From an uncultured Bacteroidales bacterium (lineage in GTDB: Bacteria; Bacteroidota; Bacteroidia; Bacteroidales; Muribaculaceae), in the NCBI GenBank assembly GCA_902768435.1, contig CACXLJ010000007.1, positions 124,001-188,000 on the forward strand: 64,000 bases of DNA. Reading direction: 5' to 3'. The translations under genes and the position numbers were made by a program. Shown piece by piece: positions 1 to 62,506 of this stretch. The notes beneath the pieces are model-generated. The model saw only the letters and a program-made list of their open reading frames with translations, had not been told where the DNA came from and did no database searches. Position 1 is the first letter of the stretch; each line of letters begins with the position of its first letter.

Positions 1-368
1 CGCATGAGTTCGGCCGCCTCTTCTTGTGTGATGCCGAAATAGTCCTTGAGTCGGGGCACCGAGATGGCGTTGCATGTCTTGATGTAGGCCACTGCATCGT
101 CGTAGAGCGGGTGCTTGTTTGCCACATCGCCATGAAACGGAGGAGGAGTCTCGTCGTCGTCAATCTCAACCGCCTCGACAGGCTGTGCCTGCTGCAACTC
201 CTCATCGGCCACATCCATGGCAGGCTCTTCGAGCGGAATGTAGGCAAACTCGCCCTCAATCTTCAGGGGCGAGATACACTTAGGGCACACGGCCTGATAG
301 CCCGTTGCCTCGAGTTGTTCCTGAGTCAGTTCAAGTTCTTCACCACATTTAGGACACTTATATTTCAT
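1..368 (-). CDS. Zinc ribbon plus FtsK-gamma-like winged helix (partial)
   Basis: Last visible gene of the tubulin/actin operon; it runs off the left edge, so only about 122 N-terminal residues are seen. Residues 5-31 form a four-cysteine zinc ribbon (C5, C8, C28, C31). An acidic, Pro-rich linker follows, then from about residue 85 a segment beginning HPLYDDAVAYI and containing KDYFGITQEEAAELM. This resembles the gamma winged-helix domain of FtsK, which in that family reads octameric DNA sites (KOPS). The cysteine spacing equals that of the neighbouring zinc-ribbon protein at 395-874. The start ATG lies 26 bp after that gene. Function is unknown; a DNA- or protein-binding adaptor is an inference from the fold resemblance. 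The domain could continue into more sequence outside the window. Confidence 0.7.
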   Translation of the reverse strand, partial: MKYKCPKCGEELELTQEQLEATGYQAVCPKCISPLKIEGEFAYIPLEEPAMDVADEELQQAQPVEAVEIDDDETPPPFHGDVANKHPLYDDAVAYIKTCNAISVPRLKDYFGITQEEAAELM

Positions 369-394
369 AGTGCAAGTTCTGTTTTATTTCAGCA

Positions 395-874
395 TCAATG
401 CAAGAGTTTTCCAAAAATATAATAAAACGCAAAGAATACGAGGGCAATCACCACGCTCAGCGTCAGGCAGCCTAGCGGAGTCATGTTTCCCAAACCGATG
501 CCAAACAGCGGTTTCTTGGCATTCTTGCCAGCTGCCTTCTTGCGGGTTGTCGGCCTAGCAGCCTGTTTGCGAGGCGAAGATGTTGACGACCTCGTATTAT
601 TATAATGTGTAGTATTGGTTGCTGCAGTGACCCTCACCGGTGTGCGGCGTTGCTGGACCGGAGCTGCCTTGGCGCGGCGCTGCGGCACGGGCGGGACCTC
701 GTCGGCCGGTTTCTTCTTGTTCGACTTTGCTGGGACGGGTGGCGGCAGGGCATCGGTGCGCGGCACCTTGAACACCGACAGACACTGCGGGCACACGATC
801 TGGCCTTGCTGGGCATTCAGCTCGCCCTTGGTCATCTCAATCTTGCGACCACACTTGTTGCAATAGTACACCAT
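395..874 (-). CDS. Zinc-ribbon protein with C-terminal membrane anchor
   Basis: 159 residues. The N-terminus carries a zinc ribbon (C5, C8, C28, C31), followed by a long basic, Pro/Lys/Arg-rich and probably disordered linker. A hydrophobic helix at about residues 132-154 is followed by a short tail, so the ribbon should face the cytoplasm on a tail anchor. The frame stays open upstream to 1027, but that would overlap the preceding gene; the ATG at 874 places the zinc ribbon at the very start as in its paralogue at 1-368, and leaves a 23-bp gap. It is co-directional with the tubulin-like and actin-like genes. No enzymatic motif is seen. A membrane-docking adaptor for the operon's cytoskeletal proteins is an inference only. 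Confidence 0.75.
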   Translation of the reverse strand: MVYYCNKCGRKIEMTKGELNAQQGQIVCPQCLSVFKVPRTDALPPPVPAKSNKKKPADEVPPVPQRRAKAAPVQQRRTPVRVTAATNTTHYNNTRSSTSSPRKQAARPTTRKKAAGKNAKKPLFGIGLGNMTPLGCLTLSVVIALVFFAFYYIFGKLLH

Positions 875-897
875 GACAGTTCCCCCACCCGTTATAA

Positions 898-1593
898 TCA
901 ATTGTGATAGCTGATTCTTGCCATTTCGGTCACGCGCCAAGCACCATTCTCGCACACGGCCTTGCCTGGGGCCTCGGTCACAATGCGACGCATGCCGCCC
1001 GACACCTGAATATTGTTGCCAGTGCAAGCACGAGTGAGGTTCTCGGTGGGCATCATGAGTGCCAGGTGATGCACATCGGCATCGTCAATCACCTTGAACG
1101 AACCGGTGCGGCCATCGGGCGTGGTGAGTTCGAACAAGGAGTTGCCGGGTTCGAAAACCGACGACACACCCATGAACACGCCTCGTTCGTCGGGACGGGT
1201 CAAGTAGAGTTGTTTTGGAAACTTCTCACGCTCTATCTGTGGTTTGTGTGCAACCTTTACCACAGTTTCGGCAGGGCGCTGCTTCAGTTGCAGTTTCAGG
1301 TCAGCTATTTCACGGTTCAAGCGATCCAGTTCAGACTGCGTTTCCTCCTGGCGTTTTTTCAGCGCCACCTTCAGGGCATTGATCTCGGCCACCGAGCGTG
1401 CCTGTTCGGCCTTAAAGTCCTTGCGCAGAAAATAGGCAAACACAGCCGCACTAGCAGCAATCAGAAAAATCACAATGTCGGCAAATGTGTGGAAACTGGC
1501 ATAGTCACTATTGCCATTTTGAGCCAAGGCAGGCAATGCTGTAATCAACATCGCCATAAGGCCAAAGAATCTATGTTTCATATTATGAGTCAT
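898..1593 (-). CDS. Membrane-anchored coiled-coil protein of the tubulin/actin operon
   Basis: 231 residues. An N-terminal signal-like segment (MKHRFFGLMAMLITALPALAQ) is followed by a transmembrane helix at roughly residues 35-56, a charged coiled coil at about 60-108, and a C-terminal folded region (about 125-231) rich in Gly, Thr and hydrophobic residues that I do not recognise. A second possible start, four codons in at 1581, would place the signal segment at the exact N-terminus. It starts 7 bp after the actin-like ATPase gene. The topology suggests a cytoplasmic C-terminal domain on a membrane anchor, with the coiled coil available for oligomerisation or partner binding. No family name can be given from sequence alone. 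Confidence 0.7.
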   Translation of the reverse strand: MTHNMKHRFFGLMAMLITALPALAQNGNSDYASFHTFADIVIFLIAASAAVFAYFLRKDFKAEQARSVAEINALKVALKKRQEETQSELDRLNREIADLKLQLKQRPAETVVKVAHKPQIEREKFPKQLYLTRPDERGVFMGVSSVFEPGNSLFELTTPDGRTGSFKVIDDADVHHLALMMPTENLTRACTGNNIQVSGGMRRIVTEAPGKAVCENGAWRVTEMARISYHN

Positions 1594-1600
1594 TGTTGAA

Positions 1601-4600
1601 TTATAACTTCGAAATCACTTCATTGCACAGGTTGGTGAGCAGGTTGTGCCTGATGATGCCAATGATGGGATAGAAGAAGGGAACATCCTCGATGGCCACA
1701 TCGTCGTCATATCGGCCTTGCAAGAAGGTGTTGATGCCGGCAATCAGGTAGTTGCTCACATTGTCGTTGAGCACCTGCTTGAAGAGGTTCATCACCTTGT
1801 TGTCGATGCCAAACTCGTCGCGCGTCACATTGTCGCACAAGTCAATGAAGAACTGGTTGAACTCCTTGACTTTCTCCACCAGCCTCTCGCGCACCTCCAG
1901 GTCGTTGACCTTGGCCATGGTGAGCGACTCGTCACCCACCATCGAGAAGCAATACTTCATGGCATTAATGTTGCGTGGACGCATGAGGTCGATGGTCGCC
2001 ACAGTCTCGGGCGTGGGATGCGGGTCGGTGCGCAGGTTCTCGATGCGCACGCCGCCACGGCAGGTAATCTGCTTGGGGCACTCGCTCTCGATCTTGATGG
2101 TGAACTGCTCGGTATATTTCTCGCCAAAGACACGCTCCAGTATCTCCTGCGTGAGTTCGTTGATCTGCGTCTTCGAACCTACAATATTCAATATCTTCGA
2201 ACCCGTGCCGCTGAAATACATTTGCTTGGGTTTCACATAGCCACGGTGCTTCATGGCACAGGCAATGTAATAGACAATGGCCGAGTAGAAGTACATGAAC
2301 ACCAGTTTGCGCTGGTCGTCGTTCTTCAAGAGTGCATTGTAACTGTAAAGGTTGCGGTCCATGGGCGGCAGGTTGCGCAACTGCTCCACATTCTCGATTG
2401 AGAACAGGAAGGCATTCACATCCTCCGACCGTTTCTGACCCATAATCACATTCAGGATGCTGTTCAGGTAGGTCACATCGCTGTTGCGCTCCACCAGTTT
2501 CTTGAAGTACTCGCTGTAGTGGCGGATGAGCGGATTGTTTTCGGCATCACGCTCACTGAAGGCATCGCCGAATATGGCATCGCCGGCAAAGCGGAACGAC
2601 GAGATGGCCACTGGTATGGTCTTGTTCTGGTCGGCTGTGGTCTGATACACCACCACATCGCTGGTGCCGCCGCCAATGTCCACACTCACGAAGTTGCTGC
2701 CTGCCACATCGGCGCTCTTGTAGTAGAACGAGGGCGCAATCGACTCGGGATAGGCATGCAGGTTGATGTCGGCATCACCGCCAAAGTAGGTGCGATACAG
2801 GTCTTGCCATGTCTGTTCCAGTTTGCCGCGGTCGCTGCCGCCCATGCTCACGGGATAGAAGTAGATGACCCGCACCTTGTCGAGCGGAGCGTGCTCCAGC
2901 AGTGCCTTGGCACGGATGAGCAGCACCATCTCGCGCAGGAACTCCTTCGAGAGCACATTGTTGCCCATCCACTTCAGGTTAGTGGTCACCTGATAGCCGT
3001 CGAAGTACTGACGCTCATAGAGGAAAGGCACATTGATGTCGCTGAACAGTGTGGTGTCGCCACTGCCGTTCACATTGCTCGCCAGCGCACTGCGCAACGG
3101 GAAACCATACACATCGTCGATGTCGCGCGGCAGGAACTCGATGCGCTGCAGCTGGTCGGCAATGAGCAGCGAATCCTTCTTAAGCAGCGAGGCGATGAGA
3201 GTGGCCGACTCGTTGTGAGCAAAAGTGAGCGGTTGCGACTCGTGGCCCCGCTCGGCCCACTCGATATGGCTGTTGGTCGTACCGAAGTCGACGGCAAATA
3301 TCAGTTCCTTGGCAGCCTCGTTGTAGGGTTTCCACAAGGGCAGTATCATGCCAGTGAAAGTGCCCAGTTCGGTCTGCACCGTGGCTTCCATATAGTCGAA
3401 ACCTCCCTGCACATCGTAGTAGGTGGTGCTGAACGAGGCCTTGGTGCGTTCCTTGCCGGTCACAGCCACATTGCCCTCATGGGCATGGAACTTGAGTTGG
3501 GCGTTGCCGTTGCGCAGGTAGGCGAACAGCTGCACCTTGTAGGCATTGGCCCCAGAAGTGCGCACAAAGGGGAACACGGCGGTGCTCAACTGCACACCGC
3601 TCACAATGCGGCCCGTGCCCATCTGCTCGTTGAACTGCCAGTTGGGGTCGGTCACGGTGAGATAGGTGCGCGAAAGTTCCATGAAGCGCTTGCGCACCGG
3701 GATGCGCAAGGTCACGGTCACACTGCCATCGGTGTTCTCCACAACCTGTAACAAAGGCTGGCCCTGAACCGAGCCCTGCAGGTCGGCGGCTGTGAAGTAG
3801 TCGAAGAAGAGCGGCTTCACGGGCAGCAGATAGCTGGCTGTGGAACCGTAGTTGGCACGCACGATGTTGCCGTCGAAGTAGTGGTCGCTGTCGATGGCGC
3901 CACTCAGCTTCACAATGCTCTCGGCCAGGAAATCGGCCGTGGTGAGGAAGGGATACTGTATGTTAGTGCCCGGCAGCTTGCGGTCGGCAAGCGCTATGCC
4001 CGAAGCATAGACCTGCGTGGCGCTGTCCCACTCGCGGTTCACATAGCGGTAGTGGTCGATGCTGCCGTTGAAGTTGTTGCGCAGCACCAGGGGCAGCACG
4101 GTGCCATCGGCCATGGGGCGCGTGGGGACAATCACGAAGTCGCTCTCGCCAGCCATGTGACGGATGTCGACACTGCGCTTGTGGTAGAGCGGCGCCGAGA
4201 GAATGGTGATTTCCTCCTCGCCCACAAAGGGGCTGTACTGCTGGTCGAGCATCTGGCGCACCAGCGGCTCGCGGTCGGCCTGCAAGGCAGTGGGATTGGG
4301 CAACGCCTGCAATATGCGCTGGTAGAGTTGCGGCTTGTTGCGCTCAATGAGCGGCAGATTCTTCACCATGTAGGCATACACATTGCCCAGTTTATAACGC
4401 AGTTGCGTGTAGGCATTGAACAGCAGGAACAGGTGATAGACAAACTCCTCGTCACGCTCCCACAGGTCGCGCACGGTCCCGAACAGCTTCACATTCTGCT
4501 CCACATTCACCGTTTCCTCGGCGGGCGCAAAAGGCGCTGCCATGGTGAACGACGAGGGCGAAGTGGCGCCCAGCACCTTGTTGCCAAACATCACTATATA

Positions 4601-5041
4601 CCAGTCGTTGAGGTCGGCAAAGTTATACACCGTGTCGCTCTGCATGAACAGTGCCAGCGTTTCGCCATAGAGGCGGTGACGCGGGTCGCTCTTGAGTTTC
4701 TCGATCTCGGTGGCCTTGTTCCAGCGCACCACATGCAGGTTGTCGCGGTGGTTCTCATACTCGAAGAAGAGCTGTGCCACATCGAGCGCATCGCTCACCA
4801 TCTTCAGTTCGCTCACGATGCCCGTCATGCGGGTGCCGCCGTTAGTCAGGTGGTCAAAAGCGTTCTTCACGAGGTCGAGCTGCGCAAAGGGGCTGGGGAT
4901 GGCTGTGCGGGGATTCTGCGACAGGCCGCCATTGGGGTCTTTGATTTGACGAATGTCGTCATCGCCATAAGGCTCCACAGGAATCCAGTCCTGAGCCCCG
5001 CTCTTCGCCGTCTTGTTGTTATAGGATAGTATGTTGCTCAT
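1601..5041 (-). CDS. Very large actin/Hsp70-like ATPase
   Basis: 1146 residues. The C-terminal half carries all three nucleotide-site motifs of the actin/Hsp70 superfamily: phosphate-1 (VDFGTTNS, D585-N590), phosphate-2 (VDIGGGTSD, D788-D795) and the adenosine motif (FSGTGSK, G945-G947). The first about 570 residues are a separate region with no motif I know, and about 180 residues follow the adenosine motif. This is much longer than FtsA, MreB or DnaK. No signal peptide or membrane helix is obvious, so the protein is probably cytoplasmic. The start is 2 bp after the tubulin-like gene, which suggests translational coupling and matched expression. ATP binding is well supported; filament formation and the role are inferences. 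A DnaK-type chaperone is less likely because no substrate-binding domain is recognisable. Confidence 0.85.
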   Translation of the reverse strand: MSNILSYNNKTAKSGAQDWIPVEPYGDDDIRQIKDPNGGLSQNPRTAIPSPFAQLDLVKNAFDHLTNGGTRMTGIVSELKMVSDALDVAQLFFEYENHRDNLHVVRWNKATEIEKLKSDPRHRLYGETLALFMQSDTVYNFADLNDWYIVMFGNKVLGATSPSSFTMAAPFAPAEETVNVEQNVKLFGTVRDLWERDEEFVYHLFLLFNAYTQLRYKLGNVYAYMVKNLPLIERNKPQLYQRILQALPNPTALQADREPLVRQMLDQQYSPFVGEEEITILSAPLYHKRSVDIRHMAGESDFVIVPTRPMADGTVLPLVLRNNFNGSIDHYRYVNREWDSATQVYASGIALADRKLPGTNIQYPFLTTADFLAESIVKLSGAIDSDHYFDGNIVRANYGSTASYLLPVKPLFFDYFTAADLQGSVQGQPLLQVVENTDGSVTVTLRIPVRKRFMELSRTYLTVTDPNWQFNEQMGTGRIVSGVQLSTAVFPFVRTSGANAYKVQLFAYLRNGNAQLKFHAHEGNVAVTGKERTKASFSTTYYDVQGGFDYMEATVQTELGTFTGMILPLWKPYNEAAKELIFAVDFGTTNSHIEWAERGHESQPLTFAHNESATLIASLLKKDSLLIADQLQRIEFLPRDIDDVYGFPLRSALASNVNGSGDTTLFSDINVPFLYERQYFDGYQVTTNLKWMGNNVLSKEFLREMVLLIRAKALLEHAPLDKVRVIYFYPVSMGGSDRGKLEQTWQDLYRTYFGGDADINLHAYPESIAPSFYYKSADVAGSNFVSVDIGGGTSDVVVYQTTADQNKTIPVAISSFRFAGDAIFGDAFSERDAENNPLIRHYSEYFKKLVERNSDVTYLNSILNVIMGQKRSEDVNAFLFSIENVEQLRNLPPMDRNLYSYNALLKNDDQRKLVFMYFYSAIVYYIACAMKHRGYVKPKQMYFSGTGSKILNIVGSKTQINELTQEILERVFGEKYTEQFTIKIESECPKQITCRGGVRIENLRTDPHPTPETVATIDLMRPRNINAMKYCFSMVGDESLTMAKVNDLEVRERLVEKVKEFNQFFIDLCDNVTRDEFGIDNKVMNLFKQVLNDNVSNYLIAGINTFLQGRYDDDVAIEDVPFFYPIIGIIRHNLLTNLCNEVISKL

Positions 5042-5043
5042 TG

Positions 5044-6564
5044 TCAGTTGATGTTTTCATATTTGTCGTCAAGCACCTTGCCTGCCGCCTTGTTGAAGAG
5101 GTCGAGCAGCTTGTATTCTACCGTGCGGTCGGAGTAGTGTTTGGCATCGCGGCTCAAGCGGTTGAGTTCGGCATTCAGGGTGTTATTGTCAACGCTCTTG
5201 CGGCCAAAGAAAGTCTTGCGCGTAGTCACATTCTTGATGATGTTGGCAAGGTTTTCCTCGCCCACATTGAATAGTTGCACATGGCGCAGGTTCTGGTGCA
5301 GTTCGGTGAGCCACTCTGTGTAGTAGTCAAAGAAATGCTCGGTGAGCTGGCGATAGAACTGCGAGGTGGCGAAGTCGCTCTTGATTTTGGGTTCGTCTTG
5401 CGTGTAGCCCTGACCAATGATGCTCTTGAAGCCGGTGCGCAGATACACAAAAAGCATGTGGAACTTCACAAGAGGCTTGTAGAGCAACTGGCGGGTTTCA
5501 AGTCCAAAGGTTGCGAAATCCACATCGAGCAGGTCGTGCTCAAGGCCATATTCAAAGGCCTTGGCGGGTTGGAAACCGCCCACGCTGTCATAGATCTGGT
5601 TGCCTGCTATGCCGGCAAACTTGAGCGGGGCCATCGCACCCACCAGTTCCACGAGATGGGCTGGGTCGTGCTGGTCGCGCACATTGCCCGGGTCGTAGTC
5701 ATAGGGTATCGACGATGTCTGGTCGCCCAGGTAGTATATCACATTCACATTGCGGTCGTTAGGACCGGTGAGTGTCTCGTTGTAGTATTGCAACGCCGAC
5801 TGCGTCTTCACCACAAAGTCGGCCTTGTCGATGCTCTTGCCCTGGCTGTTGTTCAGGTTGAAGTAAGGCAGCACCGTGAGGCCACCAATGGGGGCATGCT
5901 GCAGGAAACTCTTGTTGCTCACATCGATGTTCTGCGCCTGGCGTATGTTCTTCACCAAGATGGGGAAGCCTGCCGCACCCGTGCCGCCAAAGATGCTGCT
6001 GATGAAGAAGATGCGGTCGCCCTCGTTGAACACATTGGCAAAGGCCTTGAATTCCTCGCTGTCCTTCACCATGTTGAGCGCCACACTGCCAATGTTGGGC
6101 GAACCCACAAAGCCAATGTTCATCTTGTTCTCGAGCTGATAGTCGGCAAAGAGTAGCGACGACAGCGCCTGGTTGGGCTCGTTCATGGTGTCGTAGCCAA
6201 TGAAGTCGCGGAACTTGCACTGGCCCACAGCCTCCATGTTCATCACAAAGCTGTCGTTGATTTGCGCCGTGGTGAGTCCCATGATTTCCTGCAAGGTCGA
6301 AATCTTCATCGCAAAGAATCCGTCGCCGTTTACCTGACGGCCATACAGTTTCTCGCGAATCATGCGGTAGCTGTTGAGCAGTGACTCGGTGCGCTTCAGG
6401 TCTTCATTGCTCTTGTGCGGGTCGATGATGAGGGGCACCAGCTCGAAGTTCTCCAGCGGCTTGCCGTCTTCGTCGAGCGGACGCACTCCGGCGGCGGCAA
6501 GCATCACGAGCGACTTGAGCACTCGCGAACCGGTTCCGCCTATGGCAAATACAAATAGTCTCAT
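5044..6564 (-). CDS. Tubulin/FtsZ-like GTPase (divergent)
   Basis: 506 residues. The N-terminus has a Rossmann-type glycine loop (FAIGGTGSR, G9-S13). The tubulin signature loop appears as FGGTGAAG with glycines G193-G199, equivalent to GGGTGTG of FtsZ. The pattern fits the bacterial 'tubulin-like' group rather than FtsZ; a true FtsZ is encoded at 61145-62506. The signature lies later in the chain than in FtsZ, indicating insertions in the N-terminal half. No transmembrane segment is seen. The gene is packed between a four-helix membrane protein and the actin-like ATPase. In this superfamily such proteins bind GTP and often form filaments; whether this one polymerises is unknown. A GTP-dependent switch or scaffold at the membrane is the favoured inference. 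Confidence 0.85.
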   Translation of the reverse strand: MRLFVFAIGGTGSRVLKSLVMLAAAGVRPLDEDGKPLENFELVPLIIDPHKSNEDLKRTESLLNSYRMIREKLYGRQVNGDGFFAMKISTLQEIMGLTTAQINDSFVMNMEAVGQCKFRDFIGYDTMNEPNQALSSLLFADYQLENKMNIGFVGSPNIGSVALNMVKDSEEFKAFANVFNEGDRIFFISSIFGGTGAAGFPILVKNIRQAQNIDVSNKSFLQHAPIGGLTVLPYFNLNNSQGKSIDKADFVVKTQSALQYYNETLTGPNDRNVNVIYYLGDQTSSIPYDYDPGNVRDQHDPAHLVELVGAMAPLKFAGIAGNQIYDSVGGFQPAKAFEYGLEHDLLDVDFATFGLETRQLLYKPLVKFHMLFVYLRTGFKSIIGQGYTQDEPKIKSDFATSQFYRQLTEHFFDYYTEWLTELHQNLRHVQLFNVGEENLANIIKNVTTRKTFFGRKSVDNNTLNAELNRLSRDAKHYSDRTVEYKLLDLFNKAAGKVLDDKYENIN

Positions 6565-6605
6565 ATATTGATAGGTCTAATATTTTTTCTCTTAAATCAA
6601 AAACA

Positions 6606-7052
6606 TCACTGCGGAATGGGCGTGTGACGGCAGTTGCTGCTCCACCACCTGATGGAGAACGATGCAATCACAAAGAGCACCGCCACGGTGAGCAGGTTGC
6701 TCACGCTAAAGGCCATTGCCTCGTGGGCATAGTCCTTGCCGGCGCTGTTGAAGATGCCCGTGGTCACAAAGTAGCAGATGATGGGTGTGATGAGGGTCAC
6801 GATCACCAGCATGCTCAGCCAGTGCCACCAGCGTGCAAACCGCACCGAGTTAATCACATAGTAGTAGATGGCAGCCACCAGCCAGGCCATGCCTATGCTG
6901 ATGGCGGTAACGATGCCATAGATGCTGTTGTTATACATCTCATCGCTGAAACCTTGGGCATAGTAGAGTTTTTCAAGAATCTCTACCTTGAAAATCCAGT
7001 ACAGCACAGTCACGATAATGCCCGTCACCAGATATGTCACTTTTTTCTCCAT
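6606..7052 (-). CDS. Four-helix integral membrane protein
   Basis: 148 residues with four clear hydrophobic segments (about residues 5-22, 43-67, 77-103 and 116-136) and little soluble sequence. No family is recognised. It starts 17 bp downstream of the vWA-like lipoprotein gene and ends 41 bp before the tubulin-like gene. As the only multi-span membrane protein in the operon it is the natural candidate for linking the envelope lipoprotein to the cytoplasmic tubulin-like and actin-like proteins, but that is inference from gene order alone. Confidence 0.7.
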   Translation of the reverse strand: MEKKVTYLVTGIIVTVLYWIFKVEILEKLYYAQGFSDEMYNNSIYGIVTAISIGMAWLVAAIYYYVINSVRFARWWHWLSMLVIVTLITPIICYFVTTGIFNSAGKDYAHEAMAFSVSNLLTVAVLFVIASFSIRWWSSNCRHTPIPQ

Positions 7053-7069
7053 CGTATATCAGTTTTTTG

Positions 7070-8530
7070 TTATTTCTCAATTTCTATTGTCAATGTCGCA
7101 TAGTTGCTCTCGCCAGCCGTGAATGCATCGTAGATGCCGCGCAGGAACTGCTCGAGCCCGAAGGTGGTGCTGGCAAAGTCGCCGCCAGCGTGGCTGTCGT
7201 CACGGCTGGTGCATCGGCTAATCCACTCGGGGAAGTCATTACGCAGGCTCAGAGTCACCGCGTCGCGGGGCGATTGGGGCTTGCCTGTGATGGTGATGAG
7301 GTGCGACATGCCCTCCAGGTAGTCCTTGTTGTTGCCGTTGATGTCGGCAGACTCCACCTTGCGCACCTTGATGGCATAGCCGTCGTGCGACTGAACAGTA
7401 TAATTGTTCACATCGGTCAAGAAGGCATCGCTCTTGCGCAGGCCGTTGAGCGCTGCCGCCACCGAGAAGCACAACACGCCCGTCTCGCGGTCGCCCTCAC
7501 ACTGGGTGAGTGCACCCTGCTTGTCGCGGCTGATGCGGAAGCGGCCCACATCGTCTTTCCAGCTGGGCAGTATCCTGTACTTCAACTGGCTCTGGGCCTG
7601 GTTGAAGCGATAGGTCTGCAGCACGCCAGGCAGGTTCAAGAAGCGGTCGAAACGCGCATCGCCCGCCATGCGGTCCATCACCTGAGCATCGGCTATCACA
7701 ATCACATAGAAAGGCCTGCGGCCGCGATAGTCAAAGGGCTCGCCGTTGTAGGGGTAGTACTTGCCGTCGAAGTCGCCCATGAGCTGGTTCACGATAATCG
7801 ACTTGCCCTTATATTGCTTGAAGATGGCGGTGGCGAGGCTGTTCTCCTCGTTGAGTATCTTTTCCACGCTCACATCGGCCGTATTCTTGGGCGAGTAGAT
7901 GAGGTCGGTCACCAGCACGCTCACATTGCCGGGCTTCTGCGCCTTGAAAATCTTGTCGAAGATGAGTTGGAAGTCGGTAAAGCTGGCGTCGCCCGTGCCG
8001 CGCGTGCTTTCGTAGATGTTGCGGTCTTGCAAGAAGCTGGCGGTGGTGCCGTTATAGGGATAAATGTCGTTGTTCACGATGTTGATGCTCACCTGCTGCT
8101 CGTCGGCAGGGAAGTAGTTGATGAGGTCGTTCACCGCCTTCTTCAGCTGGCCGCCGCCACTCGTCTGGTCATAGGGCACCATCGAGCCACTGCGCTCGAA
8201 ATAGACTGTGAGCGAGTAGCTCGCCACGCCATAGGCCTTCACATTCCAGTGCATGGGCGGACGCAGGCTGCTGCCCACCTCCTCTACCATCTTGCTCAGG
8301 TTCTCGATGTTGATCTCGCCATTCTCGTCAACATAATCCTTATAGCGGTCGGGACTTGCCTTAATGATGCTGCAAATGCTGTCGAAGCGAGCCTGTGTAG
8401 TATCGCCTTGCAGGAAGGCGTCCTTCACCATCTTCTCGACAGGAGAACCTCCACAGGCACCCAGCACAAGGCTCAAGGCCAGCGCAACTGCGCCCAAAAG
8501 CAAAGAAAAGGTCGGTTTCCGTTTCAACAT
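7070..8530 (-). CDS. vWA-like domain lipoprotein
   Basis: 486 residues, first gene of the operon. A lipoprotein signal ends in LVLGAC with the lipidated Cys at residue 26, so the protein is probably outside the cytoplasmic membrane. From about residue 105 a von Willebrand A-like fold begins: the strand LTVYFERSGSM holds a MIDAS-like motif in which the usual first Asp is Glu (E112, S114, S116), and a later VSVLVTDLIYS segment resembles the second metal-site strand. The C-terminal about 200 residues are not recognised. vWA domains bind partners through a metal; the E-for-D change may weaken or alter this. A sensor or adhesive partner for the operon's membrane components is inferred. Confidence 0.75.
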   Translation of the reverse strand: MLKRKPTFSLLLGAVALALSLVLGACGGSPVEKMVKDAFLQGDTTQARFDSICSIIKASPDRYKDYVDENGEINIENLSKMVEEVGSSLRPPMHWNVKAYGVASYSLTVYFERSGSMVPYDQTSGGGQLKKAVNDLINYFPADEQQVSINIVNNDIYPYNGTTASFLQDRNIYESTRGTGDASFTDFQLIFDKIFKAQKPGNVSVLVTDLIYSPKNTADVSVEKILNEENSLATAIFKQYKGKSIIVNQLMGDFDGKYYPYNGEPFDYRGRRPFYVIVIADAQVMDRMAGDARFDRFLNLPGVLQTYRFNQAQSQLKYRILPSWKDDVGRFRISRDKQGALTQCEGDRETGVLCFSVAAALNGLRKSDAFLTDVNNYTVQSHDGYAIKVRKVESADINGNNKDYLEGMSHLITITGKPQSPRDAVTLSLRNDFPEWISRCTSRDDSHAGGDFASTTFGLEQFLRGIYDAFTAGESNYATLTIEIEK

Positions 8531-8582
8531 ATCTATAATAAAATTAAATGTTTTGTAAGCCTAAAAATATATATAAAACTTA

Positions 8583-8616
8583 CAAATATACATACTTTTA
8601 TCCAAACCACAGCAAA
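8583..8616 (-). promoter_or_regulatory. Promoter of the tubulin/actin operon
   Basis: On the minus strand TTTG (8613-8616) is separated by 22 bp from TATATTTG (8583-8590), matching the Bacteroidetes -33/-7 consensus (TTTG and TAnnTTTG) with a slightly long spacer; a second TTTG lies at 8603-8606. The predicted start of transcription is about 45 bp ahead of the lipoprotein ATG. No other promoter of this type stands out inside the seven genes, where gaps are 2-41 bp. Confidence 0.6.
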
Positions 8617-59776: not shown

Positions 59777-61093
59777 ATGGAGAAGAACCAATATATCGTA
59801 GCCTTTGAAATTGGCAGCTCCAAGATAGTAGGAGCCATTGCCGACAAATCTTCGTCGGGCTATGTCACTGTGCGCATGCTTGAGGAAGAACGCCTCATCA
59901 ACAGTGTGCGACATGGCGAAGTGAAGAATGTAGAGAATATAAAAGGGGCCATTACTCGTATTCTCAAGAAGCTCGAAAACCGGATAGACGGACGCATCTC
60001 AGATGTCTTTGTAGGCATCAGCGGCAGGTCGCTTCACTCTGAGATTTCAGAGGTGAGCCGTGACCTGGACTCGTCGAATGCCATTACCGACCAAATCATT
60101 GAGCGCATCATCCAAGATTCGCTTCGCAGCAACAACAGCAACTACGACACCATCGACATTGTTCCGCGCGCTTTCTATGTCGACAAGAAAGAAACCGAGA
60201 ATCCGAGCGGACAATTCGGTTCTAAAATCAGCATCAAGCTCAACCGCATCGTGGCCAAACCCGCCATTAAGATTAGCCTCAAGCGTGTAACCGACAATGT
60301 GGTGAAGGTGCGCCGCTACATCGTGACCCCGCTTGCCACTGCCGAAAAAGTGCTCACGCCCGAAGAGAAATCGCTGGGCTGCATGTTAGTGGATTTGGGT
60401 GCCGAAACCACCGAAGTATCAATCTATAAAAACGGTTCTCTCCTCTATTTCACGACACTCCCGCTGGGCGGACGCAATATAACCAAAGACATTGAAAACG
60501 GACTCTCGGTTGTTGAAGATGTGGCCGAGCGTGTCAAGAAAAACATCAACAATCCGCTCGAACCCTCGAACGAATCGACCAATATTGAAGGTGTCAACTC
60601 AGCCGACGCTTCACAGTACATCTCGGCTCGAGCCGGCGAGATCATTGCCAACATCATCAGGCAAATCTCCTATGCCAACCTCAATATCGAAGATATCAAG
60701 AGCATTGTGGTGATTGGCGGTGGCGCTCAACTGCAAGGTTTCAACAAGAAACTGGAAGAAACCGCAAAAATCACCGTGAAGGCCGGAACGGTTCCCCACA
60801 CATTCAACATCCTCGACTACACCATCAACAAGCCCGAATACATTCAGATTTTGTCACTGCTTGCTAAAGGCGCCGAACTTCTCCCCACAGGTGAAACCTG
60901 CATGGAAATCAACTCCTACGACGATGGTGCCGGACTCCGCGTCAACACTGCACCAAAACCTCAAGTTGACGAGCAACCCGAAGAAACCGAGGTTAAAAAA
61001 GACAAGAAAAGCGGAAAGAAGCCAGGGAGGTGGAAATTCTTTAAAGATAAGCTGAGCGGATTGCTCGAAGAAGGCGATAACGAAACCATGTAA
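59777..61093 (+). CDS. ftsA: Cell division protein FtsA (actin-like)
   Basis: 438 residues. FtsA is the actin-fold ATPase that tethers FtsZ filaments to the membrane. Phosphate-1 VAFEIGSSKIVGAIADK, SHS2 insert (about 85-165), phosphate-2 LVDLGAETTEVSIYKNG and adenosine VVIGGGAQLQGF are present. A charged linker leads to a C-terminal amphipathic helix (GRWKFFKDKLSGLLEEG) for membrane binding. Unlike the actin-like protein at 1601-5041, size and domains are standard. Confidence 0.95.
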   Translation: MEKNQYIVAFEIGSSKIVGAIADKSSSGYVTVRMLEEERLINSVRHGEVKNVENIKGAITRILKKLENRIDGRISDVFVGISGRSLHSEISEVSRDLDSSNAITDQIIERIIQDSLRSNNSNYDTIDIVPRAFYVDKKETENPSGQFGSKISIKLNRIVAKPAIKISLKRVTDNVVKVRRYIVTPLATAEKVLTPEEKSLGCMLVDLGAETTEVSIYKNGSLLYFTTLPLGGRNITKDIENGLSVVEDVAERVKKNINNPLEPSNESTNIEGVNSADASQYISARAGEIIANIIRQISYANLNIEDIKSIVVIGGGAQLQGFNKKLEETAKITVKAGTVPHTFNILDYTINKPEYIQILSLLAKGAELLPTGETCMEINSYDDGAGLRVNTAPKPQVDEQPEETEVKKDKKSGKKPGRWKFFKDKLSGLLEEGDNETM

Positions 61094-61144
61094 CAATAAC
61101 CCGAGTGAATTATTCAATTGTTTCATCAAAAAAATTACTGAATT

Positions 61145-62506
61145 ATGCCTAACTTAAAAGACAACATAGACAGCAACATTCTCGATACCATCGAACAAGG
61201 CTCGGGCAGTTTCAAAATCGACGATAAGATGCCTACCATCATCAAAGTAGTGGGCGTGGGTGGCGGCGGCAACAATGCCATCAACCACATGTATGCACAA
61301 AATATCAGCGGAGTGTCGTTTGTGGTCATCAACACCGACCGTCAGGCGCTCCAGAACTCTCCAGTGCCTAACCGGCTGCTCATTGGCCCCAACACCACCT
61401 TCGGTCTGGGTGCCGGCAACGACCCTGCCAAGGCTAAAGCCGCTGCCGAAGAGAGCGCCGACGACATTGCCGCCCTGTTTGACGACGACACCAAGATGGT
61501 GTTCATCACCGCTGGTATGGGTGGTGGCACAGGTACCGGTGCAGCGCCTGTGGTGGCACGCATCGCCCGCGACAAGGGCATCCTCACCATTGGCATCGTG
61601 ACCATCCCCTTCCTGTTCGAAGGCACCAAGAAGATTCTCAAGGCACTCAATGGCGCCGATGAGATGCAAGAATATGTAGATGCACTGCTCATCATCAACA
61701 ATGAGCGACTCACCGAGATATATCCCGACCTCGACTTTGTGAACGCATTCGGCAAGGCCGACGACACCCTCTCGATTGCCGCCCGAAGCATTTCGGAACT
61801 CATCACCACCGACGGCAAGATTAACCTCGACTTCAACGATGTGAACACCACCCTGCGCGATGGCGGCGTGGCAATCATCAGTTCGGGTTACGGCGAGGGC
61901 GAGCACCGCGTGACCAAGGCCATCGAAGATGCGCTGGAGTCACCGCTGCTGCGCAACCGCGATGTTTACGGTTCGAAACGCATCTTGATGAACTTCTATT
62001 TCAACCCCAACTCCAACAACCCCTTCCGCATGGCCGAGGTCGACGAGATGCGCCAGTTCATGACCAACTTTGGCGCCGAGGTCGATGTCATTTGGGGTGT
62101 TGCATTCGACGACACGCTCGACGAGCGCATCAAGATCACCATCCTGGCTGCCGGATTTGATGTGACGCTTGGCGATGAGGCTCCTGCCGAGAAAGCAGCG
62201 CCTGTCAAGACCGCAACCACCGAGAAAACTGAAATTCAGCGCATCAAGGAAGAGTACGGCACCGACAAGATCACCCAGCAGAACAACGAAATGGCCGAAG
62301 CCCGCTTCTTCGTGTTCAGGCCTAACGACATCGACAACGACGACATCATCGACCTGCTCGAGAAGGTTCCTGTGGTGGATCGTAGCCAGAAAACCAAGTC
62401 AAGACTCAAGGAAATGCAGGAGAATCCTGTTACTGCACCCGTGCGCAAAGCCGAACCGGCACCTGCCAAGAAAGGCACTGCCACCACCATTGAATTTGAC
62501 AGTTAA
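61145..62506 (+). CDS. ftsZ: Cell division protein FtsZ (tubulin-like)
   Basis: 453 residues. FtsZ forms the GTP-dependent division ring. The tubulin signature MGGGTGTGAAPVVA has glycines from G126; N-terminal KVVGVGGGGNNAINHM and T7-loop region LDFNDVNTTLRDGG are standard. The C-terminal about 110 residues are a variable linker with RFFVFRPNDIDNDDIIDLLEKVPVVDR; the last residues are TTIEFDS and I do not see the usual IPxFLR-type tail. A terminator-like hairpin follows at 62561. Confidence 0.96.
   Translation: MPNLKDNIDSNILDTIEQGSGSFKIDDKMPTIIKVVGVGGGGNNAINHMYAQNISGVSFVVINTDRQALQNSPVPNRLLIGPNTTFGLGAGNDPAKAKAAAEESADDIAALFDDDTKMVFITAGMGGGTGTGAAPVVARIARDKGILTIGIVTIPFLFEGTKKILKALNGADEMQEYVDALLIINNERLTEIYPDLDFVNAFGKADDTLSIAARSISELITTDGKINLDFNDVNTTLRDGGVAIISSGYGEGEHRVTKAIEDALESPLLRNRDVYGSKRILMNFYFNPNSNNPFRMAEVDEMRQFMTNFGAEVDVIWGVAFDDTLDERIKITILAAGFDVTLGDEAPAEKAAPVKTATTEKTEIQRIKEEYGTDKITQQNNEMAEARFFVFRPNDIDNDDIIDLLEKVPVVDRSQKTKSRLKEMQENPVTAPVRKAEPAPAKKGTATTIEFDS

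What the first reader, a model, noticed from the sequence alone, without database searches (positions are those of the whole stretch)
1..8616. Operon pairing a divergent tubulin with a giant actin/Hsp70-like ATPase and envelope partners
Seven co-directional genes with gaps of 2-41 bp follow a single promoter: vWA-like lipoprotein, four-helix membrane protein, tubulin-like GTPase (GGTGAAG loop), actin/Hsp70-like ATPase (three nucleotide motifs), coiled-coil membrane protein, and two zinc-ribbon proteins. The tubulin and actin folds are 2 bp apart. The same genome encodes the canonical FtsA-FtsZ pair at 59777-62506, so this is a second actin-tubulin module. A predicted membrane-remodelling system joining an FtsZ-like family with a vWA protein was proposed earlier (Makarova and Koonin, 2010); the large actin-like subunit and paired zinc ribbons here are, to my knowledge, not part of that description. 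A membrane-linked NTP-driven scaffold is my inference; defence or envelope remodelling are both open.
Basis: partly seen in the sequence, partly recalled or inferred. Interest (0 to 1): 0.92.

Follow-up and report, generated by a model that had tools for sequence, protein, structure and literature searches.

The report
Paired tubulin-actin envelope operon in Bacteroidota
Many gut and soil bacteria carry a conserved gene set that pairs a relative of tubulin with a very large relative of actin/Hsp70 and membrane proteins, usually next to an ion-driven motor like that of the Zorya phage-defence system and to exported DNA- or protein-cutting enzymes, so it may be an undescribed envelope defence machine, of which this window holds a motorless form that is fixed in its genus.

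Summary
Confirmed: window 3-8530 (minus strand) holds seven co-directional genes, gaps 2-41 bp. AlphaFold plus structure search show that the 506-aa protein has the tubulin/FtsZ fold (VIA Z 15.7) and residues 577-1026 of the 1146-aa protein the actin/Hsp70 fold (Z 19.0 to MreB). Among 80 relatives fetched by the tubulin, all 76 with enough contig carry lipoprotein, 4-TM protein, tubulin, actin-like in this order; 19 loci fetched by the actin-like protein all carry the tubulin too. Cyanobacterial plasmids have the module as well. The lipoprotein has invariant vWA-type metal-site residues, but no profile search confirmed the fold. The zinc ribbons are not core: only this genus and a few motorless relatives have them. 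The family therefore looks like a Zorya-like envelope conflict system. The window's genus has a motorless form, present in nearly all species, so there an envelope housekeeping role is about equally likely. No paper found describes this operon; nearest are Makarova and Koonin 2010 and Kaur 2020.

The parts
7070..8530 (-). lip: lipoprotein with vWA-type metal-site residues, 486 aa (signal peptide II, Cys26; ExSxS 112-116, T185, D209)
   Evidence: Cys26 invariant in the 18-member alignment; E112 105/105, S116 105/105, T/S185 105/105, D209 106/106; no acidic surface-export signal after the Cys. No profile search returned a vWA match above threshold
6606..7052 (-). tm4: small membrane protein with four predicted TM helices, 148 aa
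   Evidence: homologue between lip and tub in all 76 complete named loci
5044..6564 (-). tub: tubulin/FtsZ-superfamily GTPase, 506 aa
   Evidence: Pfam Tubulin in 26/27 relatives, best 3.1e-9, Tubulin_2 25/27; AlphaFold pLDDT 90.1, pTM 0.93; Foldseek top 50 tubulin/FtsZ entries, one of them TRiC with tubulin bound; VIA Z 15.7 to FtsZ 5mn8, 2.9 A over 196 residues; G9 G10 T11 G12 R14 and F192-G196 121/121
1601..5041 (-). act: large actin/Hsp70-superfamily ATPase, 1146 aa; ATPase domain about 577-1026, preceded by a long N-terminal region whose fold was not identified
   Evidence: profile hit MreB 1.9e-5; AlphaFold pLDDT 84.4, pTM 0.75; Foldseek MreB-like/Hsp70 7.7e-9; VIA Z 19.0 to MreB 4czk, 3.6 A over 280 residues, Hsp70 18.6; nucleotide motifs near-invariant
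898..1593 (-). cc: signal peptide, one TM helix and coiled coil, 231 aa
   Evidence: homologues after act in most relatives
395..874 (-). zr1: N-terminal zinc ribbon, C-terminal TM helix, 159 aa; genus-specific extra
3..368 (-). zr2: N-terminal zinc ribbon, C-terminal TM helix; cut by the window start, full length 209 aa
   Evidence: runs to G000:C7:123739
8583..8616 (-). candidate promoter: TATATTTG (8583-8590) and TTTG (8613-8616)
   Evidence: consensus match only, TAnnTTTG occurs 39 times in the window (both strands)

Best explanation
A trans-envelope NTPase machine. Shown: a tubulin-fold GTPase and a large actin/Hsp70-fold ATPase are encoded as an invariant adjacent pair together with a four-TM protein and a lipoprotein with vWA-type residues. 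Inferred: tub and act act together in the cytoplasm on a shared, nucleotide-controlled scaffold or switch; tm4 and cc anchor it at the inner membrane; the lipoprotein sits in the periplasm or inner leaflet of the outer membrane and reports envelope damage by ligand or metal binding. In the widespread full form the signal is passed to or from a MotA/MotB(ZorAB)-like peptidoglycan-binding ion motor, and exported proteases and nucleases (trypsin-like or retropepsin-like; SNase-, Endonuclease_NS- or EEP-type) act in the periplasm on invading DNA or proteins, most likely of a phage or another mobile element. The window has the motorless core form with two membrane zinc-ribbon proteins; it is fixed in its genus and may have been turned to a standing envelope function.
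For: Four-gene core in order on one strand in 76/76 named loci with enough contig; median tub-act gap 5 bp, 66/76 at most 30 bp. Act-first searches also always bring tub (19 loci). Tub and act distances correlate at r 0.95 over 94 loci, the highest of all pairs. Nucleotide motifs (near-)invariant, so both NTPases are probably active. Same core in Cyanobacteria. MotA-like gene X in 52/64 relatives, ZorB/MotB-like Y in 46 (PADLOC ZorB1 1.1e-15; PDB MotB-related 8vvn_B 1.9e-14, ZorB 8qyd 1.4e-6; X to MotA/TolQ/ExbB 8vvn_C 7e-4). Exported hydrolases after the motor in 41/52 against 4/12 motorless loci (Fisher p 0.004), none of X, Y, TRYP, SN or NUC1 in 225 kb of control DNA from the same genomes; trypsin-like and retropepsin-like exclude one another (p 5e-4); 61 of 65 carry an N-terminal export segment. 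Patchy distribution, about 3% of Bacteroidota genomes; tyrosine integrase directly upstream of lip in five loci. Zorya couples ZorAB sensing to a nuclease (PMC11890865).
Against: In the window's own genus the operon is nearly universal (tub 36/37, lip 39/41 and 20/20 good genomes) and lacks motor and effectors (Y in 1/41), which looks like housekeeping, not defence. No core protein matches a PADLOC model at a convincing score. Flanking genes are not clearly richer in defence genes than controls. The exported location of the hydrolases differs from Zorya, whose effectors are cytoplasmic, and would also fit scavenging of DNA and protein. No phage challenge, localisation or biochemical data exist.
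Confidence: 0.45

Rival explanations
1. Envelope housekeeping or membrane-remodelling machine: the tubulin-actin pair shapes or maintains the envelope (vesicle formation, outer-membrane or peptidoglycan maintenance), as Makarova and Koonin proposed for FtsZl1 operons; the motor supplies force across the periplasm and the exported proteases and nucleases are accessory clean-up enzymes.
For: Genus-core status with non-conserved flanks; membrane and periplasmic partners throughout; purifying conservation of both NTPases; prediction in PMC2875224.
Against: Absent from the three sampled sister genera and from about 97% of Bacteroidota; effector swapping and mutual exclusion and adjacent integrases are not expected of housekeeping.
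Confidence: 0.35
2. Macromolecule scavenging: a motor-driven envelope machine that captures extracellular DNA or protein and lets exported nucleases and proteases digest it.
For: The accessory enzymes are exported or lipoproteins and include general nucleases and proteases.
Against: No transporter or SusCD-type gene was noticed among the recurrent neighbours; a cytoplasmic tubulin-actin pair has no obvious role; core-only forms without any hydrolase are common.
Confidence: 0.1
3. DNA or plasmid segregation module (TubZ- or ParM-like) that happens to sit next to membrane genes.
For: Actin- and tubulin-fold filaments segregate plasmids (established knowledge); cyanobacterial copies lie on plasmids.
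Against: Mostly chromosomal in Bacteroidota; invariant lipoprotein and 4-TM partners; no DNA-binding adaptor noticed among the recurrent neighbours.
Confidence: 0.04

Closest known systems
FtsZl1 / Tubulin_2 (PF13809) operons, Makarova and Koonin 2010 (PMC2875224)
   Same: Divergent FtsZ-superfamily protein, vWA protein with signal peptide, membrane proteins, OmpA-like proteins (compare Y); predicted membrane machinery distinct from FtsZ. 25/27 relatives match Tubulin_2, best 3.2e-9.
   Different: Most FtsZl1 proteins have an extended coiled coil and a helical C-terminal domain; their operons feature a P-loop GTPase and protein kinases, not seen here; an actin/Hsp70 ATPase partner is not mentioned in the main text. 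Additional files were not readable here.
GTPase-centric (GAP1-N2) conflict systems with tubulin, vWA or HSP70, Kaur et al. 2020 (PMC7159879)
   Same: Predicted conflict systems combining tubulin with vWA proteins near the membrane; HSP70 in related neighbourhoods; zinc ribbons.
   Different: Centred on a TRAFAC-clade GTPase and GAP1; tubulin and HSP70 themes described as non-overlapping; Firmicutes and Actinobacteria; no such GTPase in this operon.
Zorya anti-phage systems (ZorAB; PMC11890865)
   Same: In most relatives a ZorB/MotB-like protein (1.1e-15 to PADLOC ZorB1) next to a MotA-like protein, followed by nuclease or protease genes.
   Different: No ZorC-ZorG match among the proteins scanned; the tubulin-actin-lipoprotein core is foreign to Zorya; effectors are exported; window and genus lack the motor.
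FtsA-FtsZ
   Same: Adjacent actin-fold and tubulin-fold genes, membrane linked.
   Different: The same genome has its own FtsA-FtsZ (59777-62506); tub and act are longer, highly divergent and not their orthologues.
SrfB (PF07520)
   Same: About 1000-residue protein family with a short match around the phosphate-2 motif.
   Different: 11.9 bits against a cut-off of 27.1; 4/23 relatives match weakly.

Membership tests
Tubulin/FtsZ superfamily | Tubulin/FtsZ GTPase fold with glycine-rich T4 loop | tested here: met
Actin/Hsp70 ATPase superfamily | Actin-type ATPase fold with phosphate-1, phosphate-2 and adenosine motifs | tested here: met
FtsZl1 (Tubulin_2, PF13809) | Score above the Pfam cut-off | tested here: not met
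   window protein 16.1 bits, cut-off 27; best relative 3.2e-9, so related but not a clear member
FtsZl1 (Tubulin_2, PF13809) | Extended coiled coil plus helical C-terminal domain after the FtsZ-like domain | tested here: inconclusive
   506 aa, helical C-terminal part but no long coiled coil evident in the model's secondary structure
vWA domain | MIDAS DxSxS...T...D | tested here: inconclusive
   ExSxS-T/S-D near-invariant, Asp replaced by Glu in Bacteroidota, DxSxS in the cyanobacterial homologue; no profile hit above threshold; no structure predicted
Zorya | ZorA-ZorB pair in the operon (window) | tested here: not met
   no X or Y match in the window or L003; no Y in G000
Zorya | ZorA-ZorB pair in the operon (relatives) | tested here: inconclusive
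   X in 52/64, Y in 46; Y clearly ZorB/MotB-like; X only weakly matched to MotA/TolQ/ExbB
Zorya | ZorC/D, ZorE or ZorF/G effector | tested here: inconclusive
   none of the six accessory and four core proteins scanned matches a ZorC-ZorG model; other operon genes were not scanned one by one
GAP1-N2 GTPase-centric conflict systems | TRAFAC GTPase and GAP1 gene | tested here: not met
   no P-loop GTPase among the seven window genes; neighbours of relatives were sampled, not scanned exhaustively
Anti-phage defence system | Protection against phage | not testable with these tools
   needs experiment

The most novel reading that the evidence does not exclude
An undescribed class of bacterial immune machine in which a dedicated tubulin-family GTPase and a giant actin-family ATPase work as an obligate pair, linked across the envelope to a vWA-like lipoprotein and, in most species, to a ZorAB-like ion motor that controls exported proteases and nucleases.
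Probability: 0.35. Interest if true: 0.92.

Novelty: new variant of a known kind. Interest (0 to 1): 0.78.

Why it matters
FtsA-FtsZ is the best-known dedicated actin-tubulin pair in bacteria (own knowledge). A second, unrelated pair, kept adjacent in every relative examined across Bacteroidota and found in Cyanobacteria, and mostly wired to an ion motor and to exchangeable exported enzymes, would show that cytoskeletal NTPases form their own envelope machines, perhaps for immunity. Culturable carriers (Parabacteroides, Spirosoma, Pedobacter, Flavobacteriaceae) make it directly testable.

Tried and rejected
Single-sequence Pfam, NCBIfam and PADLOC scans gave no assignment over cut-off for the core; alignments were needed. 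SrfB relationship: only a short motif match. Lipoprotein profile against PDB gave no vWA hit, so the vWA call rests on motif residues and position. Defence-island test (140 flanking against 140 control proteins, PADLOC at 1e-10): type I restriction genes in three flank proteins, type II methyltransferase and others in controls; inconclusive. Phage collection: no match; only three viral contigs match, so it is not a phage cytoskeleton. X had no Pfam match singly. The alignments A11 and A12 are only containers for scanning, not real alignments. The N-terminal region of act was not folded and searched by itself (no jobs left), so no claim is made about its fold. My first gene caller chose antisense ORFs and was replaced by a codon-based one.
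Full report
OBSERVATION. The seven genes are real and lie on the minus strand of window 3-8530, transcribed lip, tm4, tub, act, cc, zr1, zr2 with gaps of 17, 41, 2, 7, 23 and 26 bp and ATG starts. The last gene runs past the window start; in the genome (window = G000:C7:124001-188000) it is 209 aa long. The gene upstream of lip is an AlkZ-like glycosylase on the same strand, 131 bp away. A Bacteroidota-type -7 box stands 53 bp before lip. FtsA and FtsZ of the same genome are at 59777-61093 and 61145-62506 on the plus strand.

FOLDS. The window sequence alone matches Pfam only below cut-off, but 26 of 27 tub relatives match Tubulin (best 3.1e-9) and 25 match Tubulin_2 (best 3.2e-9). The AlphaFold model of tub (pLDDT 90.1, pTM 0.93) finds tubulin and FtsZ structures throughout the top 50 of the Foldseek list, one of them a TRiC entry with tubulin bound (best E 5.9e-4), and VIA gives Z 15.7 over 196 residues to FtsZ. 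The act profile hits MreB at 1.9e-5; its model (pLDDT 84.4, pTM 0.75) matches actin-superfamily proteins over 577-1026: Foldseek 7.7e-9, VIA Z 19.0 to MreB, 18.6 to Hsp70, 18.5 to MamK, so the data do not choose between the actin and Hsp70 branches. The first 570 residues were not tested alone. Nucleotide-binding residues are invariant or nearly so in 121 tub and about 118 act sequences.

LIPOPROTEIN AND MEMBRANE PARTNERS. Lip has a lipobox and a near-invariant ExSxS, T/S, D set that resembles the vWA metal site with Asp replaced by Glu; the cyanobacterial homologue has DGSGS. Profile searches did not confirm vWA. tm4 has four predicted TM helices, cc a signal peptide, TM and coiled coil, zr1 and zr2 a zinc ribbon and a C-terminal TM.

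CONSERVATION. In the window's genus tub is found in 36 of 37 genomes (G019, 74% complete, lacks it) and lip in 39 of 41 (20 of 20 good genomes), although the flanking genes are mostly not shared. Three sampled sister genera lack act. In the phylum 13 of 395 genomes match tub. The one genome-contig scan found 538 or more relatives, of which the 80 best were kept, so those loci are the more similar part of the family. In these, all 76 loci with enough contig have lip, tm4, tub, act in order on one strand; the four exceptions are contigs of 3-6.5 kb. Searching with act first gave 19 loci, some of them in genomes that also appear among the 80, again all with tub next to act. Distances of tub and act correlate at 0.95. 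Cyanobacterial plasmids carry tub and act, in Gloeothece adjacent, with a lip homologue on the opposite strand, a small membrane protein and a coiled-coil protein.

WHAT FOLLOWS THE CORE ELSEWHERE. Of 64 named loci with at least 5 kb after act, 52 have X (about 526 aa) and 46 of these Y (about 216 aa). Y matches ZorB1 at 1.1e-15 and a MotB-related motor protein at 1.9e-14; X has the TolQ/MotA-type helix pattern by eye and hits a MotA/TolQ/ExbB chain at 7e-4, a weak match among coiled-coil hits that its position before Y supports. After them come exported hydrolases: Trypsin_2, retropepsin-like, SNase, Endonuclease_NS, EEP; at least one of the first four in 41 of 52 motor loci and 4 of 12 motorless loci. 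Trypsin-like and retropepsin-like genes occur together once where about 6.6 are expected. Control DNA from 15 of the same genomes (225 kb) has no X, Y, TRYP, SN or NUC1 match and one retropepsin-like match. Five loci have a tyrosine integrase directly before lip. Zinc-ribbon proteins occur mainly in motorless loci. These counts come from related genomes and are not corrected for phylogeny.

READING. For the family as a whole the exchangeable exported enzymes, the Zorya-like motor, patchy presence and integrases favour a conflict function; nothing here proves it. For the window's genus, fixed presence without motor or enzymes leaves housekeeping about equally likely. The membrane positions, the trigger and any joint polymer of tub and act are inference.

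KNOWN WORK. Makarova and Koonin (PMC2875224) described FtsZl1 with vWA, GTPase and OmpA-like partners; Kaur et al. (PMC7159879) described tubulin and HSP70 in GTPase-centred conflict systems; Zorya (PMC11890865) shares the motor. Ten paper searches found no description of the tubulin-actin operon; subscription papers and supplements were not readable, so an earlier description cannot be excluded.

Noticed in passing
L029:10973-12544 and L039:10667-11935: In two genus members a gene is inserted between tub and act: AAA-ATPase_like with PDDEXK_9, and a DUF1016/YhcG PDDEXK nuclease.
   Followed up: partly
L025 (G033:C14) and L207 (G033:C13): One genus member has a second, divergent operon with a duplicated partial act, and an X-Y motor pair on another contig, the only Y found in 41 genus genomes.
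   Followed up: partly
L027:4722-9866 and L028:5003-10190: A divergent tub-act branch in Bacteroidales (act E 1e-16 to 1e-22), in L027 with a trypsin-PDZ (HtrA-like) gene on the other side of tub.
   Followed up: partly
L090:13497-14489: Zinc-ribbon protein of a motorless relative that also carries a bacterial SH3 domain, hinting at peptidoglycan binding.
   Followed up: no
L003:7043-8113: GYF_2-domain protein with PQYQEPVQP-type repeats, a few genes downstream of the operon, outside the window.
   Followed up: no
L168 and L169: Two IMG/VR contigs called viral carry the core, X, Y and an Endonuclease_NS gene; no clear phage genes were seen in the stretch read, so the viral call is doubtful.
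   Followed up: partly
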